DNA of 40,601 nucleotides from an uncultured Saprospiraceae bacterium (GTDB taxonomy: Bacteria > Bacteroidota > Bacteroidia > Chitinophagales > Saprospiraceae). Positions 19,763-27,185 of this stretch are shown here, piece after piece. The stretch is from positions 1 through 40,601 of the forward strand of contig CAJQQY010000097.1 in NCBI GenBank assembly GCA_905480595.1, in the 5' to 3' direction. The notes beneath the pieces were generated by a model. That model was not told where the DNA came from and searched no databases. It was given only the letters and a program-made list of their open reading frames with translations. How positions within the stretch are numbered: position 1 is the first letter of the stretch; each line of letters starts with the position of its first letter. The position numbers were made by a program, and so were the translations under genes.

Positions 19763-21298
19763 TTACAAATTTTCCAAATCATTCAAATATACTTCCGCTT
19801 GTTTCAAAATATCCGCTCGCTTCTCTCCGTCCATTTTATTCCACAGTCGATAAGCCATTCCAATCCTTGGATTTTTTTCTAATTTATCTCGATGTCGATC
19901 ATAAAAATCCCAATACAAACTATTGAATGGACAAGCTCGCTCCCCTGTTTTTTCTTTTTTATTGTAAAAACAAGTTTTGCAATAATGACTCATTTTGTCC
20001 ACGTAGTTGGCTGAACTCACATAAGGTTTTGTTCCGACAATTCCGCCGTCTGCAAATTGCGACATACCTCGTGTGTTTGTAATTTCAACCCACTCGATCG
20101 CGTCAATATAAATTCCCAAATACCATTCATCTAATTCGTCAGGAGAAATTCCAGCTAGTAAGGCAAAATTTCCAGTCACCATCAATCGCTGAATGTGATG
20201 TGCATAAGCATAATCCAAAGACTGCTGAACGGAATGTCGAACGCAATGCATTTTAGTTTTTCCAGTCCAAAAATAATTTGGAAGTTTATTGTTATGTTCT
20301 AAATAATTAAGCTCTGAGAACTCTGGCATTTTCGCCCAATAAACTCCTCGCATGTATTCTCGCCAACCAATAATTTGACGAACAAATCCTTCGATCTGTG
20401 CAATCGTAATTTGGTCTTGATTTTTTTTCCAATGTGCATTCGCCGCTTTGACCACTTCTAAAGGCGAGAGCATTTTAACATTCATGCTAAAAGAAATTCG
20501 AGAGTGATATAATGACCAATAATGTGGAGTCATCGCATCTTGGTAAGTACCAAAAAGTGGAAGACATTTTTTAATAAAGAAATCTAAAACTTGCAAAGAT
20601 TCTTCTCGAGTAGTCGCCCAGATAAAATTAGTTGGATCAATATTCCCAATCGTTTTTACCTCTGCATCGATAATACGTTGATGAACCTCAGAAACATCTT
20701 TTTCAAAAACTAAAGGTTCGATTGGCACGTGATCCTTGGGTATTTTTTTTCGATTTTCTTTATCATAATTCCATTTGCCAGTCACAGGTTGATCACCATC
20801 CATCATTAAATCATATTTACGTCGCATGCTTCGATAAAACGATTCCATGAGGTATGTTTTTTTCCCTTCAAAAAAATCACGTAACTCCAAACGAGTGCTC
20901 ATAAAATGCTCTGAATCAAAAACTTGGGAAGTAATTCCTATCGCTTTGCAAAAACTTTTCAGTTGTTCATCCAAGCGATACTCATCGGGCAATTGATACT
21001 CGAAATGTTCGATTTTATTTTCGTCGATGACAACTTTTAAATTTTCGACAAGGCTCTGTTTATTTTTTTTAGCATCTAATTCCCAATAAATGACTTGATG
21101 ATTTTCTTCTCTTAATTGCTTCGCAAAATTTTCCATGCTTGCAAAAAATGCCACAACCTTTTGGATGTGATGATTCACGTAATCCGTTTCTTGCCGCATC
21201 TCAAAAAGGACGTAAATAATATTTTCATCTACTTTTTGGAACCATGAATGTTGTGCATTTAATTGATCTCCAAGAATTAATCGTAAAGTTTTTTTCAT
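19763..21298 (-). CDS. Cryptochrome/photolyase-related iron-sulfur flavoprotein (PhrB/FeS-BCP type)
   Basis: The 511-residue protein belongs to the prokaryotic photolyase-related family, whose characterised members repair (6-4) photoproducts using FAD, a lumazine antenna and a [4Fe-4S] cluster. The start [20 protein letters not shown] is the family's antenna-domain start. [37 protein letters not shown] and [20 protein letters not shown] are typical of the catalytic half. Four cysteines (352, 440, 443, 456; HCVRHS, HYCKTC, RACPFN) fit the cluster ligands. Its ATG overlaps the stop of the DUF2256 gene (ATGA), so the two are translationally coupled. A second, different photolyase-type protein is encoded 535 bases upstream, on the same strand. 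A repair role is likely; a sensory role is possible. Confidence 0.93.
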
Positions 21299-21432
21299 GT
21301 TTGATTTTTATTTCTTCGACAACGTTCGCTGCAATATTTCACTTCATCCCAAACCTTTGCCCACTTCTTTCGCCACTTGAATGGACGCTCACACACGACG
21401 CATATCTTTTCGGGTAAATGTTCTTTTTTCAT
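21295..21432 (-). CDS. DUF2256 zinc-ribbon-like small protein
   Basis: This is a 45-residue protein, [18 protein letters not shown] onward, with four cysteines spaced C-x2-C-x19-C-x3-C (11, 14, 34, 38) and many Lys/Arg/Trp residues, the DUF2256 pattern. It probably binds one zinc ion. Its function is unknown. The TGA stop lies inside the ATGA that starts the photolyase-related gene, which implies coupled translation and a functional link to that flavoprotein. The frame stays open upstream to 21810, but that extension runs antisense through the TIGR03643-type gene and has no family features, so the ATG at 21432 is the start. A gap of only 49 bases separates it from the divergent small gene. 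Confidence 0.88.
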
Positions 21433-21481
21433 GTCTGGTAAACAATAGTTCTCAAAGGTTGTTTTAAAAATTATAAAACTT
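21433..21481. promoter_or_regulatory. Divergent control region of the photolyase module
   Basis: Only 49 AT-rich bases separate the start codons of the DUF2256 gene (minus) and the TIGR03643-type gene (plus), so both promoters must overlap here or lie inside the opposite gene. I see no clean TTG/TAnnTTTG pair; AACCTTTG on the minus strand is the nearest element. Confidence 0.45.
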
Positions 21482-21778
21482 ATGAAGATGAAGATTTCAG
21501 AAAAATATAATTTGACTACTCGTGATGTTGATCGCATTGTTGAAATGGGTTGGGAAGATCGAACGACTTTTGACGCTATCGAAATACAGTTTGGTGTACC
21601 TGAAAAAGATGTGATTAAATTAATGCGAGAAGAGATGAAATTGAGCAGTTGGAAAATGTGGCGCAAACGAGTGCAAGGTCGCTCAACAAAACATTTGAAA
21701 AAAAGAACTTTTGCTGAAGGTCGGCATAAATGTTCTCGACAAAGAGCTATCTCAAATAATAAAATTTCGAAAAGATAA
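21482..21778 (+). CDS. TIGR03643-type small basic protein
   Basis: The 98-residue protein begins with [27 protein letters not shown], then [33 protein letters not shown]. This matches my memory of the TIGR03643 family, short bacterial proteins of unknown function. The first 60 residues look helical and could hold a helix-turn-helix-like DNA-binding unit ([20 protein letters not shown]). The C-terminal 35 residues are strongly basic and probably disordered. A second ATG at 21488 is an equally good start. It is divergent from the DUF2256/photolyase pair over a 49-base shared region and converges on the second cryptochrome gene. A regulatory or nucleic-acid-binding role is inference. Confidence 0.85.
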
Positions 21779-21833
21779 ATGATTAGGATCTGATATTTTA
21801 ATATCCCCAATACTCAACTCCCAAAATCTCCAA

Positions 21834-23309
21834 TCAAGTTTTCCTAACCTTTCTCGAAGGAATCACATGCTTATATAAAATTCGTTTTGCCTCTTTCACT
21901 ACACTTGGGTGATCTCGATGTGCCCAGATTTTATCCCTCGCATTTTTTGAAGTTTCTTTTAAATCCACAATTGGTTTCGGGTAATCTTTCCCCAATTCAA
22001 CATGATAAAATTGTTGTTCCAGTAATGTCATTTTCCAAGGTTCATGAATAAATTCTACTGGAATATTTTCCAACTCAGGAATCCATTTTTTGATAAAAAC
22101 TCCATTCGGATCATGGTCTTGCGATTGCTTTATCGGGTTGTACATCCGAATGGTATTTAAGCCCGTGACACCTGCTTGCATTTGAAATTGTGGATAATGA
22201 ATTCCAGGTTCAAAATCTAAAAAAAGTTGCGCCAACCAATTCGAACCTTCCTTCCAATGTTGCCATAAGTTTTGTGTCAAAAATGAAACTAGCATCGCTC
22301 GCATTCTAAAGTTTATGTAACCAGTTGCAGTCAAACATCGCATGCACGCATCGATTAAAGGATAACCAGTTTTTCCATTTTTCCATGCTTCAAAGTGTGT
22401 TTGATTTTCATTTCGTTGGAGCAAATTATAACCTCGATTTAAGTTTTCAAATTCCATCCGATCTTCCATTTCAAACTTTTGAATGAAGTGGCAATGCCAA
22501 TGTAATCGTGAAGTAAAATTGGTGAAATTTCGTTTATAAGATTTACTCTCCTTCGCTTTTTTTTGCGACTGATAAACTTGTCGAAGACTTAGATTCCCCC
22601 AAGTGATGTAGGGTGAAAGACGACTACAACCTCTTCGACTTTCAAGTGGTTTTGAAATGTGGCGACTGTAATTATGTATTCGATTTTCAAAAAACCCATT
22701 CAAATATCGAAGGCCAATGGAAGTACCTCCTTTTTGAAAATCAGGATGTGATTGAGTAAATTCTTCTGGTATCTTTTTCCCAAAAAAACTAGCAGAGAGA
22801 TTTTCAAAAAGGATAGAATTTAAATTTTGTAAATCAGGCTTTTCCAAAGGAGCATTCATGAATCTTTTCCATAAGTCATTCCACGTCAATCTATTTTGCA
22901 ATCCTCGAACGACTGCATTTGTCTGTGACTCGATCCATTCTATTTTATTTTTTTTGCAAAAAACTTGAACAGTTTTGTCTCGGTCATAAGTAACTCTAAT
23001 TCCAGTTTCCTCGTGCGAAAATATTTTTTTTATGGAAAATTGAGATCGGATTTTTTCGAAAACATTCAATACTTCATCGTGGAAAATAAATACCTGAGCA
23101 TTGTATTTTTTAAAATAAAAATTCAAATCAATCAAAGATTCCCACACAAACCTCCAATGCCTTAAATCATGTTGAGGCGCAGCAATCACGGAAGGCTCAA
23201 ACACATAAATCAATGCAATTGGATCGCCCGTTTCAATCGCTAATTTAAGCGGTTGATGATCGGTGAGACGCAAATCTCTTTTGAACCAAACTAGATTTAT
23301 GGATTGCAT
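21834..23309 (-). CDS. Atypical cryptochrome/photolyase
   Basis: This is a FAD-binding blue-light flavoprotein that either repairs pyrimidine dimers or senses light. The 491 residues have the antenna-type Rossmann domain ([18 protein letters not shown], 1-135). The FAD domain follows with [22 protein letters not shown] (194-215), [25 protein letters not shown] and [24 protein letters not shown]. Where class I photolyases read NNGGWQW, this protein reads HYPQFQM (371-377). The Asn facing flavin N5 and the proximal electron-transfer Trp are thus both replaced, by my hand alignment. I have seen this variant in other Bacteroidota sequences, and its activity is unclear to me. It follows the CAT-like gene by 50 bases on the same strand. 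Confidence 0.92.
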
Positions 23310-23359
23310 GGAAGTAGAACCAACTTGAAATGTGAATTGTTTTAAGTTCGTTTTTATTC

Positions 23360-23998
23360 CTAAAAATAACGCTCTGGATTCTTTGCCATTTCTTCTATTT
23401 TTTGAAAATATTCCCCCACATGTCTCCCATCTACTACCGCATGATGTACTTGGACGGAAAGTGGCATTTGTATTTTTCCATTCATTTCAAAAAACTTTCC
23501 CCAAACAATCCGAGGAACAGAGTCAGATGGATGATGCCGCATCGCATGTTCGAAACTAGTAAAACTCACCCATGGAATTGAGGATAAAAAAAGAAAATCA
23601 TCTCGCCCAATTTCATCTTCGAAAACAGGTTCCATTTTCATTTTCTCACTTTTTTCAAAAGCTTTTTGAATGAATTTTTTCGCATCTTTTTCATAATCAA
23701 CGGTACAAAAACTAAACACATCTGCTACTTCTGTGAATACCGTAAATGAAGGTTGAACTGTTTCATGTTCGACAATTTTTCCTTCTCTAATCCTCCATTT
23801 AAATTCTGGAATTTCATTCGCAGTTCTCGAAACTAAATAAACAATACTTGCCGTGAGCGGTAATTTATTTTTTTTCAAAAAAGGTAAAAAGTGAGTGATA
23901 TCCACATTTGCAGTTATGTTAAAATGTGGATGATTCATGTTATTAAAAAACTCAAAATGTTTTTGTCGATGTGGATTTTCGAAAATAACTTCTCGCAT
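23360..23998 (-). CDS. CatA-like (chloramphenicol acetyltransferase-fold) acyltransferase
   Basis: The 212-residue protein has the CAT fold. It starts [20 protein letters not shown] and has [16 protein letters not shown] near the substrate pocket, the [14 protein letters not shown] strand, and the catalytic motif [14 protein letters not shown] with His186 and Asp190. Homologues acetylate a hydroxyl group using acetyl-CoA; those in Bacteroidota chromosomes are mostly uncharacterised and need not confer chloramphenicol resistance. The frame is open seven codons earlier (24019), but MREVIFENP is the standard start. It is the first gene of a pair with the cryptochrome, divergent from uvrA across an inverted-repeat element. 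Confidence 0.9.
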
Positions 23999-24026
23999 TT
24001 TTTTTTGTAAAAATAACAATTCTCAT

Positions 24027-24158
24027 GTGGTGGTCTGCTTTAGCTGACCTAAAATATGGAGCGGAGCGACAATTTTACATTTACAAAAAGCTTAGATCTT
24101 TTTTATTTAGGAAAAATCGCTTTGCTCTTTTTTCAGATCAACTAAAGCAGACCAACAC
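24027..24158. repeat. 132-base inverted-repeat element between the CAT-like gene and uvrA
   Basis: The left arm 24027-24050 and right arm 24135-24158 are complementary at 21 of 24 positions (core GGTCTGCTTTAG / CTAAAGCAGACC). Inside, GAGCGGAGCGA (24059-24069) pairs with TCGCTTTGCTC (24117-24127) with only two G-U positions. The middle is AT-rich. The whole unit can fold into one long interrupted hairpin. It occupies almost half of the 307-base gap 24020-24326; the rest holds the uvrA promoter region. It could be a MITE-like remnant or a bidirectional terminator/regulatory structure. Confidence 0.75.
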
Positions 24159-24272
24159 GTGTTATTTCCAAAAATAACTAAATGAGTAAACGTATATTTT
24201 ATCTTTTGAAAAACAAAAGTTAGGATTCTTATGTTTTACGTTTTTAGCAAAAAAATTCTAAACTTTTCTGAC

Positions 24273-24280
24273 TATTTTTG
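24273..24280 (+). promoter_or_regulatory. Putative -7 element for uvrA
   Basis: TATTTTTG followed by CAGG matches TAnnTTTG and lies 47 bases before the uvrA ATG. No TTG is found at the expected upstream spacing, so the call rests on the -7 box and position only. No LexA-like box is obvious. Confidence 0.45.
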
Positions 24281-24326
24281 CAGGCTCAAATTTTAACAAT
24301 TCGATACATTTCGTCTCCACATAGAT

Positions 24327-27185
24327 ATGGCAAAAAGAACAACTACTAAAGCAAAAAGTAACGGCACAAAATCAGTCAATGATTATATTGATGTGATCGG
24401 AGCTCGGGTGCATAATCTCAAAAACATTGATGTTCAAATTCCTCGAAATCAATTTGTGGTGATTACTGGAATTAGTGGAAGTGGAAAATCTTCTTTGGCA
24501 TTCGATACTATTTATGCGGAAGGACAACGTCGATACATGGAAACATTTTCGGCCTATGCTCGACAGTTTATTGGAGAAATGGAACGGCCTGATGTGGAGA
24601 AAATTACGGGCTTGAGTCCTGTAATTTCTATTGAGCAAAAAACAGTTGGTCGAAACCCAAGATCGACAGTTGGAACGATTACAGAAGTTTACGATTTTCT
24701 GCGATTATTATTTGCAAGAGTGGGGGAAGCATACTCGCACGTGACAGGAAAGAAGATGGTGAAATATACCGAAGAGCAAATGATGGAAAATATTTTTAAA
24801 ACTTTTGGAGGGAAAAAAACGCTCTTGCTCGCACCTTTAGTTCGAGGTCGAAAAGGGCATTATCGAGAGTTGTTTGACCATGTGCGAAAGCAAGGATATA
24901 CCAAAGTTAGAGTTGATGGAGAGGTGCAAGATTTAGTTCCAAAAATGCAAGTAGATCGATATAAAGTTCATGATATTGAGTTGGTCATTGATCGATTAAA
25001 TATGACAAAAGATCGCAAAGAACGATTCGCCACATCATTGCAAACTGCATTAAAAATGGGGAATGGTTTAGTCTTCTTGGCGGAGCAAGGACAGAAGGAA
25101 GTTTTCCCTTACAGTAAACATTTAATGGATGCGGAGACTGGACTTTCATATGAAGAACCTTCGCCAAATGCTTTCTCTTTTAACTCACCTTACGGAGCTT
25201 GTCAAAATTGCAAAGGACTCGGTGAAGTGATGAAAGTGGATTTGAAAAAAGTAATTCCAGATGATTCAAAATCAATTAATGATGCTGGAATTGTTCCCTT
25301 TGGTGAAGTGCGAGATAATTGGACTTTTAAGCAATTAAAATCTATCGCTAAAAAATATAAATTCACTTTTTCTACTCCTATCAAAGACATTCCTGCAAAA
25401 GCATTAGACATCATATTGAATGGAGGTGACGAGAGTTTTGAAATTAAGAAAAATTTCAAACATGACTTCGTTTATAATCTAGCTTATGAAGGTTTGAACA
25501 AAATGTTGGTTCGATGGTACAAAGATTCCTCTTCCGAAAAAATCAGACGATGGACCGAGGATTTTATGGTCATTGATAAATGTCCAACTTGTAATGGTCA
25601 ACGATTAAAAATTGAGTCTCTACACTTTAAATTGGATGGAAAAAATATCAGCGATTTGGCGGTGATGGATTTTACTGATTTGATGGATTGGGTAGAAAAT
25701 TTAGAGGGAAGTTTAACCGAACGTCAAAAGGCAATTGGGCATGAAGTAATTAAAGAAATCAAATTGCGAATTGGGTTTTTGCTTCATGTTGGTTTGGATT
25801 ATTTAAACTTGGATCGACCTGCGAGAACATTGTCAGGTGGGGAGGCGCAACGAATTAGATTAGCGACTCAGATTGGTTCGCAGTTGACTGGCGTGACTTA
25901 TATTTTGGATGAGCCAAGTATTGGCTTGCATCAGCGAGATAATCGAAGATTGATTGAAGCATTGCGAGAACTATCAGATATTGGAAATACCGTTTTGGTC
26001 GTCGAGCATGATAAAGATATTATGTTGGCTGCTGATTTTTTGATTGACTTGGGACCAGGTGCAGGGAAGCATGGAGGTGAATTGGTTGGGGCAGGAGTAC
26101 CTGAGACTTTTTTGAAAAAAGAGACTTTGACTTCTCTTTACTTGCGAGACAAAAAGAAAATTGAGGTTCCTAAAAAACGTCGAAAAGGTAGTGGCAACTT
26201 TTTGGAATTGAAAGGTGCGAATGGAAATAATTTAAAAAATGTAAACATCAAAATTCCGTTAGGTACTTTTTGCTGTGTGACTGGAGTTTCGGGAAGTGGA
26301 AAATCTACGTTGATCAACGAAACGCTCTATCCGATTTTGCGTCAGCATTTTTACAAAAGTATCAAACGGCCGATGGAATATAAGTCAATCACAGGCCTGG
26401 AGCACGTGGACAAAGTGATTGAAATTGACCAGTCTCCAATCGGTCGAACACCTCGATCAAATCCAGCTACTTACACTAAAATGTTTGATGAAATTCGAAA
26501 GATCTATTCGAGTTTACCAGAGGCGAAAATTCGGGGTTACAAACCTGGTCGTTTTTCATTTAATGTAAAAGGTGGTCGTTGTGAAGAATGCCAAGGAGCA
26601 GGAAGGCGATCGATCGAAATGAATTTCCTTCCAGACGTACAAGTTGATTGTGAACGATGTCAAGGTCGAAGGTATAATCGAGAGACTTTAGAAATTTTGT
26701 ACAAAGGAAAGTCCATCAGCGATGTGCTGAATATGACTGTGGAAGAAGCAGTTGATTTTTTCGAAATGATTCCAAAAATTCATCGAAAAACGAAAACACT
26801 AAAAGATGTTGGTTTAGGTTATATCACTTTGGGACAGCAAGCAACAACACTTTCAGGTGGAGAAGCTCAACGAGTAAAACTGTCAGAAGAATTATCAAAA
26901 AGAGATACTGGAAATACCATTTATATCTTGGATGAACCGACGACAGGTTTGCACTTTGATGATATTCGACAATTGTTAAATGTGTTGAATAAATTAGTGG
27001 AAAAAGGAAATACCATTGTAGTCATTGAGCACAATTTAGATGTAGTAAAAGTGGCTGATTATATTATTGATATGGGACCAGAAGGAGGAAATAGAGGTGG
27101 AGAAGTAGTCGCTCAAGGTACTCCTGAAAAGGTGGCAAAGGCAAAGAAAAGTCACACAGGGCATTTTCTAAAGATGGAACTGTAA
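24327..27185 (+). CDS. uvrA: Excinuclease ABC subunit A
   Basis: UvrA is the damage-sensing ATPase of nucleotide excision repair, which loads UvrB at lesions. The 952 residues hold two ABC modules: Walker A GISGSGKSSLAF (48-59) and GVSGSGKSTLIN, and signatures LSGGEAQRIRLA and LSGGEAQRVKLS with ILDEPSIGLH and ILDEPTTGLH. Zinc cysteines are present in CQNCKGLGE, CPTCNGQR, CEECQGAGRR and CERCQGRR. An N-terminal extension of about 18 Lys/Thr-rich residues precedes the conserved DVIGARVHNLKNIDV. It is monocistronic, with a promoter-like TATTTTTG upstream and a good terminator downstream. It is close to two photolyase-type genes, which fits a UV-repair neighbourhood. Confidence 0.98.
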   Translation: MAKRTTTKAKSNGTKSVNDYIDVIGARVHNLKNIDVQIPRNQFVVITGISGSGKSSLAFDTIYAEGQRRYMETFSAYARQFIGEMERPDVEKITGLSPVISIEQKTVGRNPRSTVGTITEVYDFLRLLFARVGEAYSHVTGKKMVKYTEEQMMENIFKTFGGKKTLLLAPLVRGRKGHYRELFDHVRKQGYTKVRVDGEVQDLVPKMQVDRYKVHDIELVIDRLNMTKDRKERFATSLQTALKMGNGLVFLAEQGQKEVFPYSKHLMDAETGLSYEEPSPNAFSFNSPYGACQNCKGLGEVMKVDLKKVIPDDSKSINDAGIVPFGEVRDNWTFKQLKSIAKKYKFTFSTPIKDIPAKALDIILNGGDESFEIKKNFKHDFVYNLAYEGLNKMLVRWYKDSSSEKIRRWTEDFMVIDKCPTCNGQRLKIESLHFKLDGKNISDLAVMDFTDLMDWVENLEGSLTERQKAIGHEVIKEIKLRIGFLLHVGLDYLNLDRPARTLSGGEAQRIRLATQIGSQLTGVTYILDEPSIGLHQRDNRRLIEALRELSDIGNTVLVVEHDKDIMLAADFLIDLGPGAGKHGGELVGAGVPETFLKKETLTSLYLRDKKKIEVPKKRRKGSGNFLELKGANGNNLKNVNIKIPLGTFCCVTGVSGSGKSTLINETLYPILRQHFYKSIKRPMEYKSITGLEHVDKVIEIDQSPIGRTPRSNPATYTKMFDEIRKIYSSLPEAKIRGYKPGRFSFNVKGGRCEECQGAGRRSIEMNFLPDVQVDCERCQGRRYNRETLEILYKGKSISDVLNMTVEEAVDFFEMIPKIHRKTKTLKDVGLGYITLGQQATTLSGGEAQRVKLSEELSKRDTGNTIYILDEPTTGLHFDDIRQLLNVLNKLVEKGNTIVVIEHNLDVVKVADYIIDMGPEGGNRGGEVVAQGTPEKVAKAKKSHTGHFLKMEL

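What the first reader, a model, noticed from the sequence alone, without database searches (positions are those of the whole stretch)
24027..24158. 132-base nested inverted repeat between the CAT-like gene and uvrA
Two 24-base arms match at 21 positions and enclose a second 11-base stem with G-U pairs, so the unit folds as one long hairpin. It is too long and interrupted for a simple terminator and lacks a U-tract. It could be a MITE-like mobile remnant or a structured regulatory element shared by two divergent genes, one of them uvrA.
Basis: seen in the sequence. Interest (0 to 1): 0.6.

Follow-up and report, generated by a model that had tools for sequence, protein, structure and literature searches.

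The report
REPIN mobile palindrome beside uvrA
The hairpin beside uvrA is one of dozens of copies of a small mobile-type palindrome (a REPIN) in this bacterium's genome, which also carries a transposase gene flanked by the same repeats, so it is a new family of a known kind of element.

Summary
The nested inverted repeat at 24027-24158 is real and folds far better than shuffles (z -8.0, 0 of 200). It is not unique: 26 intact copies were extracted from the own genome and 22 from one congener, G004. Each is two inverted REP units: an unpaired GTGG (sometimes GTAG) foot, a small hairpin GGTCTGCTTTAGCTGACC with a T-T mismatch, then an A-tract.

The own genome carries a REP-associated tyrosine transposase (RAYT, 220 aa) flanked by these repeats; G004 has its orthologue, also flanked by them. 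The uvrA-side copy is shared with G004, while G002 and G001 have the same divergent gene pair without a recognisable copy. So it is a REPIN family with its RAYT in an uncultured Saprospiraceae genus.

The window copy looks half dead: its right arm has lost foot and hairpin. I found no support for a role in uvrA regulation. Less routine: flanks just outside the element pair copy-specifically, and at two loci the spacer holds a terminator hairpin that G002 has without recognisable arms. New member of a known kind; modest interest.

The parts
24027..24158 (.). REPIN, 132 nt: two inverted REP units with feet outside; pairing extends a few bases further (24024-24161)
   Evidence: model match 24021-24164 on both strands
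24027..24049 (+). left REP unit: foot GTGG (24027-24030), hairpin GGTCTGCTTTAGCTGACC (24032-24049)
   Evidence: single-strand DNA fold -4.4 kcal/mol, 0 of 200 shuffles as good; consensus of 96 arms
24136..24158 (-). right REP unit, decayed: foot GTGT instead of GTGG, two changes in the hairpin core
   Evidence: core has 2 mismatches; no fold of its own (0 kcal/mol); the G004 orthologue's corresponding foot is intact
24059..24127 (+). inner stem GAGCGGAGCGA / TCGCTTTGCTC and its loop, the family's recurrent inner part
   Evidence: a GAGCGAAGCGA-like stretch and/or its complement at up to 3 mismatches in 29 of 48 copies, both in 16 of 48 (loose threshold, no control); DNA fold of 24056-24133 5 of 200 shuffles as good
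24128..24133 (+). T6 directly after the inner stem (terminator-like on the + strand, though the loop is about 47 nt)
   Evidence: read; not reported by the terminator scan, which allows loops of 3-8 only
23360..23998 (-). neighbour: CAT-family acetyltransferase gene
24327..27185 (+). neighbour: uvrA

Best explanation
It is a REPIN: two REP units in inverted orientation, one copy of a family of several dozen in this genome. A RAYT single-strand DNA transposase encoded elsewhere in the genome (G000:C278:31283-31930, minus) most likely recognises the GTGG/GTAG foot plus mismatched hairpin on single-stranded DNA, cuts beside it and moves or copies the pair into intergenic DNA, often right after stop codons. 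This copy most likely entered the CAT-uvrA gap before the two species that share it split, and is now decaying in its right arm. Shown here: the family, its architecture, a RAYT flanked by the same repeats in two species, intergenic placement, sites with and without a recognisable element. Inferred from published RAYT biochemistry: recognition, cutting, mobilisation. An effect on uvrA or the CAT gene is unproven and probably incidental.
For: Copies: 73 arm cores at up to 3 mismatches against 4 for the reversed control; 26 intact pairs own, 22 in G004; model hits 68 and 113 counted on both strands, lower bounds since 150 candidates per genome were scored. Foot plus mismatched hairpin. RAYT flanked by these repeats in G004 and, at the corresponding place, in the own genome (76% identity). 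RAYT families: NF047646 E 4e-20 for the G004 protein, PF01797. No copy inside a called ORF among 48. Occupied in G004, no recognisable arm in G002 and G001 at uvrA; one further own site (L007) empty in G004.
Against: The RAYT matches are moderate: the G004 protein is below NF047646's cut-off (72.2 against 80 bits), the own one just below Pfam's (22.9 against 23). The REPIN arm next to the own RAYT (L028:1985) folds only weakly alone (27 of 200 shuffles as good). No movement was observed. Spacers vary from 22 to 151 nt, and differ widely between orthologous copies, unlike a fixed transposed unit. Absence in G002/G001 could be erosion rather than an empty site.
Confidence: 0.9

Rival explanations
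1. It works chiefly as an intrinsic (perhaps bidirectional) terminator or insulator: the inner stem with flanking A- and T-tracts stops transcription, and the REP arms are incidental or stabilise it. It could be a REPIN by origin and a terminator by effect.
For: T6 after the inner stem; recurrent inner stem; convergent gaps over-represented, 13 of 45 against 6 of 67 background gaps, p 0.009; 21 of 45 gene 3' ends stop within 4 bp of a foot, two of them by overlapping ORF calls; two spacers hold strong locus-specific terminator-like hairpins.
Against: The window copy lies between divergent genes; divergent gaps are not depleted (13 of 45 against 15 of 67, p 0.51). Its inner loop is about 47 nt. 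The scan found no terminator-like site in it (loops of 3-8 only). 19 of 48 copies have no inner stem of the GAGC kind.
Confidence: 0.15
2. It is a structured regulatory RNA or operator that controls uvrA and/or the CAT gene.
For: Strong fold; position in the divergent gap, shared by two species.
Against: No Rfam match at gathering score in the window; the same element beside many other genes; same gene pair without a recognisable element in G002 and G001; no G-U bias; the right arm is decaying.
Confidence: 0.04
3. It is a classical MITE moved by a DDE transposase.
For: Size, terminal inverted repeats, dispersed intergenic copies.
Against: No target duplication: exact direct repeats at the borders of 48 copies are at chance for 2-4 bases, 1 against 0.27 expected for 5, none for 6 or 8. 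Conservation sits in a footed hairpin in each arm. The repeats flank a Y1-type RAYT gene.
Confidence: 0.02

Closest known systems
REPINs / BIMEs with RAYTs (Pseudomonas fluorescens SBW25, E. coli; PMC3116915, passages)
   Same: paired inverted REPs forming one hairpin, extragenic, with a RAYT gene flanked by the same repeats
   Different: different sequence, AT-rich host, spacers here 22-151 nt and mostly not conserved, recurrent inner stem with A/T tracts
GTAG-tagged REP superfamily, HH dimers (PMC3733652, abstract, passages and section 15)
   Same: GTAG-like foot outside, dimers 20-100 bp apart, some spacers with complementary ends, placement next to 3' ends of genes
   Different: GTGG is the commoner foot here; in the passages read, Bacteroidetes are named for CGTC repeats
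TnpA-REP subclass 2.4 (PMC6006769, sections 12 and 23 and passages)
   Same: GT[AG]G foot, abundant in Bacteroidetes and Cyanobacteria, about 200 aa, HxH / WQ / Y-x3-NP motifs (motifs seen by eye)
   Different: subclass not tested with a tree; the reported REP insertion inside the RAYT gene was not looked for
E. coli REP with mismatched stem (PMC8266576, passages)
   Same: conserved mismatch inside the stem, foot outside
   Different: single T-T mismatch here instead of the AA-GC bulge; importance untested

Membership tests
REP / REPIN (GT[AG]G type) | short palindrome repeated many times, mainly intergenic | tested here: met
   (0 of 48 inside a called ORF)
REP / REPIN (GT[AG]G type) | 5' GT[AG]G foot next to an imperfect hairpin | tested here: met
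   third base of the foot G in 77 and A in 16 of 96 arms; foot unpaired, T-T mismatch. In the window's right arm not met (GTGT, no fold)
REP / REPIN (GT[AG]G type) | two REPs in inverted orientation forming one hairpin (REPIN) | tested here: met
   10 single units also seen
REP / REPIN (GT[AG]G type) | a RAYT gene in the genome flanked by the same REPs | tested here: met
   own L028 and G004 L056
REP / REPIN (GT[AG]G type) | RAYT cuts the footed strand; movement or excision | not testable with these tools
   only site differences between species
RAYT (own gene L028) | match to RAYT / Y1 transposase models with HUH and tyrosine motifs | tested here: met
   orthologue of L056 (76%), which matches NF047646 at E 4e-20 but below its cut-off and PF01797 above it; own protein 22.9 against 23 bits; motifs by eye
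MITE (DDE type) | target site duplication | tested here: not met
intrinsic terminator | GC-rich stem, short loop, U-tract, ending transcripts | tested here: inconclusive
   stem and T6 present but long loop; scan negative with loops of 3-8; no RNA data
known Rfam RNA | match to a family model | tested here: not met
   0 matches at gathering score in the window

The most novel reading that the evidence does not exclude
In this family the two REP arms may not travel as one fixed unit. REP units may settle on the A- and T-tracts of host terminators, so that the spacer is the host's own terminator, and arms and their nearest flanks (about 10 bp) may then be made complementary to each other by hairpin template switching. 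That would explain fast-changing spacers, terminators shared with a congener that shows no arms at two loci, and the copy-specific pairing of outer flanks.
Probability: 0.15. Interest if true: 0.55.

Novelty: new member of a known kind. Interest (0 to 1): 0.32.

Why it matters
It adds a RAYT-REPIN pair in an uncultured Bacteroidota lineage, with contrasts inside one genus: two species with the RAYT and many copies; one genome rated 100% complete (G002) with no RAYT match and one weak model hit; one (G001) with other RAYT relatives and no hit to this model. REPIN gain and decay with and without a transposase can be compared there. The outer-flank pairing and the terminators in spacers bear on how REPINs form.

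Tried and rejected
Rfam search of the window: 0 matches at gathering score. The first RAYT candidate (L042, the only PF01797 hit in the own genome) was rejected as cognate because other repeats (GTAGCGGGAC...) flank it; the cognate one was missed by that profile search and found with the G004 protein. Target duplication: none convincing. RNA-level selection judged by G-U against A-C: no support. Covariation over 29 outer pairs in 18 copies is mixed: pairs changed on both sides 6 against 4.1 shuffled (57 of 500), further pair types 49 of 500, but cells changed on both sides 1 of 500 and covariation score 4 of 500. I first took G002 to hold eroded arm relics at three sites; a shuffle test backed one (L117, 14 of 23, 5 of 400) and not the others (L115 344 of 400; L111 303 of 400, but the segment given was cut short, so L111 is not properly tested). 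The L096 locus gave no usable comparison. Dropped rows: 10 single units left out of the pair statistics; L039-L041, weak internal-only matches, left out of the listing; 3 edge copies left out of the orientation tests.

Full report
OBSERVATION. The window holds the described structure: outer arms 24027-24049 / 24136-24158, extended by an ungapped scan to 24024-24054 / 24131-24161; inner stem 24059-24069 / 24117-24127. Folding is far beyond chance (z -7.99, 0 of 200 shuffles). That there is no U-tract holds for the outer stem only: six T follow the inner stem (24128-24133). The neighbours are a CAT-family gene (minus) and uvrA (plus), divergent.

COPIES. The 132-base element gave 97 matches at E up to 10 in the own genome, both strands counted, 40 of 151 candidates scored. 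The 18-base arm core occurs 73 times at up to 3 mismatches against 4 for the reversed control. Of 40 genomes searched at up to 2 mismatches (own plus 39 relatives), 8 have a match: own 60, G004 of the same genus 135, the other six 1 to 5. A covariance model from 18 copies hits 68 times in the own genome, 113 in G004, once weakly in G002 (E 0.007), never in G001 or G003. The element is palindromic and mostly hit on both strands, and 150 candidates per genome were scored, so this means at least about 34 and 57 places. G004's RAYT is 100% identical to one in contig CALJOK010000071.1 of an uncultured Saprospiraceae MAG; that the window belongs to the same family follows from the shared genus (inference).

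ANATOMY. I extracted 48 intact pairs, 26 own and 22 from G004. Own stretches were chosen by match to the window copy, most G004 stretches by visible paired cores, so intact copies are over-represented. Over 96 arms the conserved unit is AC-GTGG-T-GGTCTGCTTTAGCTGACC-T-R-AAAAA; the third foot base is G in 77 and A in 16. The window's left arm folds alone as single-stranded DNA with the foot unpaired and a T-T mismatch in the stem (-4.4 kcal/mol, 0 of 200 shuffles), the REP layout. Of the two arms tested beside the own RAYT, one folds well (1 of 200) and one weakly (27 of 200). Feet are outside, as in the HH dimers of PMC3733652 (passages). Spacers run from 22 to 151 nt; 29 of 48 hold a GAGCGAAGCGA-like stretch and/or its complement at up to 3 mismatches, 16 both (loose, no control). 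The window's right arm has foot GTGT and two core changes and does not fold alone: this copy is probably half dead.

TRANSPOSASE. The only PF01797 hit in the own genome (L042) is a RAYT-like gene flanked by a different repeat. In G004 a RAYT (L056, 218 aa) is flanked on both sides by the window's repeat (1034-1230 and 1905-2042). Its protein finds an own orthologue (G000:C278:31283-31930, 78% identity in the search, 76% by BLASTP), beside the same protease-like gene (DegQ-like by recall), with a REPIN on one side (L028:1985-2065) and a single REP on the other (L028:2743-2760). HxH and Y-x3-NP motifs are seen by eye. Scores are moderate: NF047646 4e-20 but 72.2 against a cut-off of 80 bits for the G004 protein (the own protein was not given to that library); PF01797 32.3 bits (G004) and 22.9 (own) against 23. 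G002, rated 100% complete, gave no RAYT match, nor did G003 (66% complete); G001 has five matches in each, some weak, and no hit to this element's model. Inverted repeats near several other RAYTs of the genus have other hairpins, in line with one REP family per RAYT (PMC6006769, section 12).

SITES. At uvrA, G004 has the orthologous copy. G002 and G001 have the same divergent CAT-uvrA pair without a recognisable arm: best matches 11 of 23 (268 of 400 shuffles as good) and 13 of 23 (28 of 400). G003 has another neighbour and is uninformative. Five further own sites were looked up: in G004 three are filled (L112; L116 with degenerate feet; L118), one keeps its right arm and part of the left (L113), one shows none (L109, 294 of 400). 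In G002 none of five holds an intact pair; one (L117) has an arm-like stretch that beats shuffles (5 of 400), the other four do not (42, 303, 146 and 344 of 400; the second from a segment cut short). Six own copies have an orthologous copy among the G004 stretches then at hand, including uvrA and the RAYT-side REPIN; arms are kept while spacers differ (elements of 81 and 138 bp at the RAYT, 68 and 196 bp at L029/L098).

PLACEMENT. Of 48 copies 19 are tandem, 13 convergent, 13 divergent, and 3 have no called ORF on one side; other gaps in the same stretches are 46, 6 and 15 (rough ORF calls). Convergent placement is enriched (p 0.009), divergent not depleted (p 0.51). 21 of 45 gene 3' ends facing an element stop within 4 bp of the foot (two by overlapping ORF calls), against 1 of 26 gene 5' ends in divergent gaps, also an overlap.

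FLANK PAIRING. Outside the feet, left and right flanks pair within a copy more than between copies: positions 4-6, 89 of 144 against 60.0 shuffled (0 of 5000); positions 4-10, 173 of 336 against 127.3 (0 of 5000); positions 11-15, 16-20 and 21-30 show no excess. Abutting stop codons explain part, but the signal stays in 27 copies with no stop codon within 8 bp (47 of 81 against 33.2, 1 of 5000) and in 13 divergent copies (26 of 39 against 16.3, 2 of 5000). Arm positions 2, 4 and 17 also agree within copies (6, 8 and 9 of 500 shuffles; many positions tested). The window copy itself has no such extension at position 1. Possible causes: insertion into small palindromes, an outer stem belonging to the unit, or hairpin template switching. 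I cannot decide. Related copies are not independent, so these shuffle counts are not exact probabilities.

SPACER TERMINATORS. At two loci (L018 own, L101 in G004) the spacer holds a locus-specific hairpin with T-tract, and G002 at the orthologous place has a similar hairpin without recognisable arms (0 of 1000 shuffles score as high). Three such loci were looked up and the third (L096) was uninformative. Either arms settled around a host terminator or they were lost in G002.

LITERATURE. Searches: REPIN+RAYT+Bacteroidetes, 2 papers; REP-associated tyrosine transposase terms, 12 papers; REPIN+RAYT, 18 papers; Saprospiraceae + repetitive extragenic palindromic, 0; REPIN+RAYT+terminator, 2. Seen: PMC3733652 abstract, passages, section 15; PMC6006769 passages, sections 12 and 23; PMC8266576 and PMC3116915 passages; PMC8049555 outline and abstract; PMC2817692 a term search for Bacteroidetes names, none found. 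Nothing I saw there describes this family; supplementary tables were not read, so a listed relative could have been missed.

VERDICT. A real repeat of mobile type: a REPIN with its RAYT. Known kind, new family; a function at uvrA is unlikely.

Noticed in passing
L018:2037-2147 with L114 (G002); L101:2058-2166 with L125 (G002): The REPIN spacer holds a terminator-like hairpin that G002 has at the orthologous place without recognisable REP arms.
   Followed up: partly
48 REPINs, window 24027-24158 and loci: Flanking bases 4-10 outside the feet pair within a copy more than between copies, also where no stop codon abuts.
   Followed up: partly
L042:1279-1350 (G000:C485): A second RAYT-like gene of the own genome with a different palindrome, GTAGCGGGACTC...GAGTCCCGCTAC, beside it.
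   Followed up: partly
L074, L076, L075, L055: Other RAYT-like genes of G001 and G004 have their own inverted repeats nearby, with hairpins that differ from gene to gene.
   Followed up: partly
L124 (G000:C508): Where G004 has a typical REPIN (L101), the own genome has a strongly diverged one with an enlarged spacer.
   Followed up: no
window 19763-27185: A cluster of light- and UV-repair genes: DPRP photolyase-related protein (PF04244), DUF2256, DNA photolyase, then the CAT-family gene and uvrA.
   Followed up: no
G000:C102:41893-44691 (L069): A second UvrA paralogue, 44% identical to the window's; one of 44-46% is found in each of the five genomes of the genus searched.
   Followed up: no
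L023:1-38 (G000:C412): A contig begins inside an arm of this repeat, so some assembly breaks may be due to the family.
   Followed up: no
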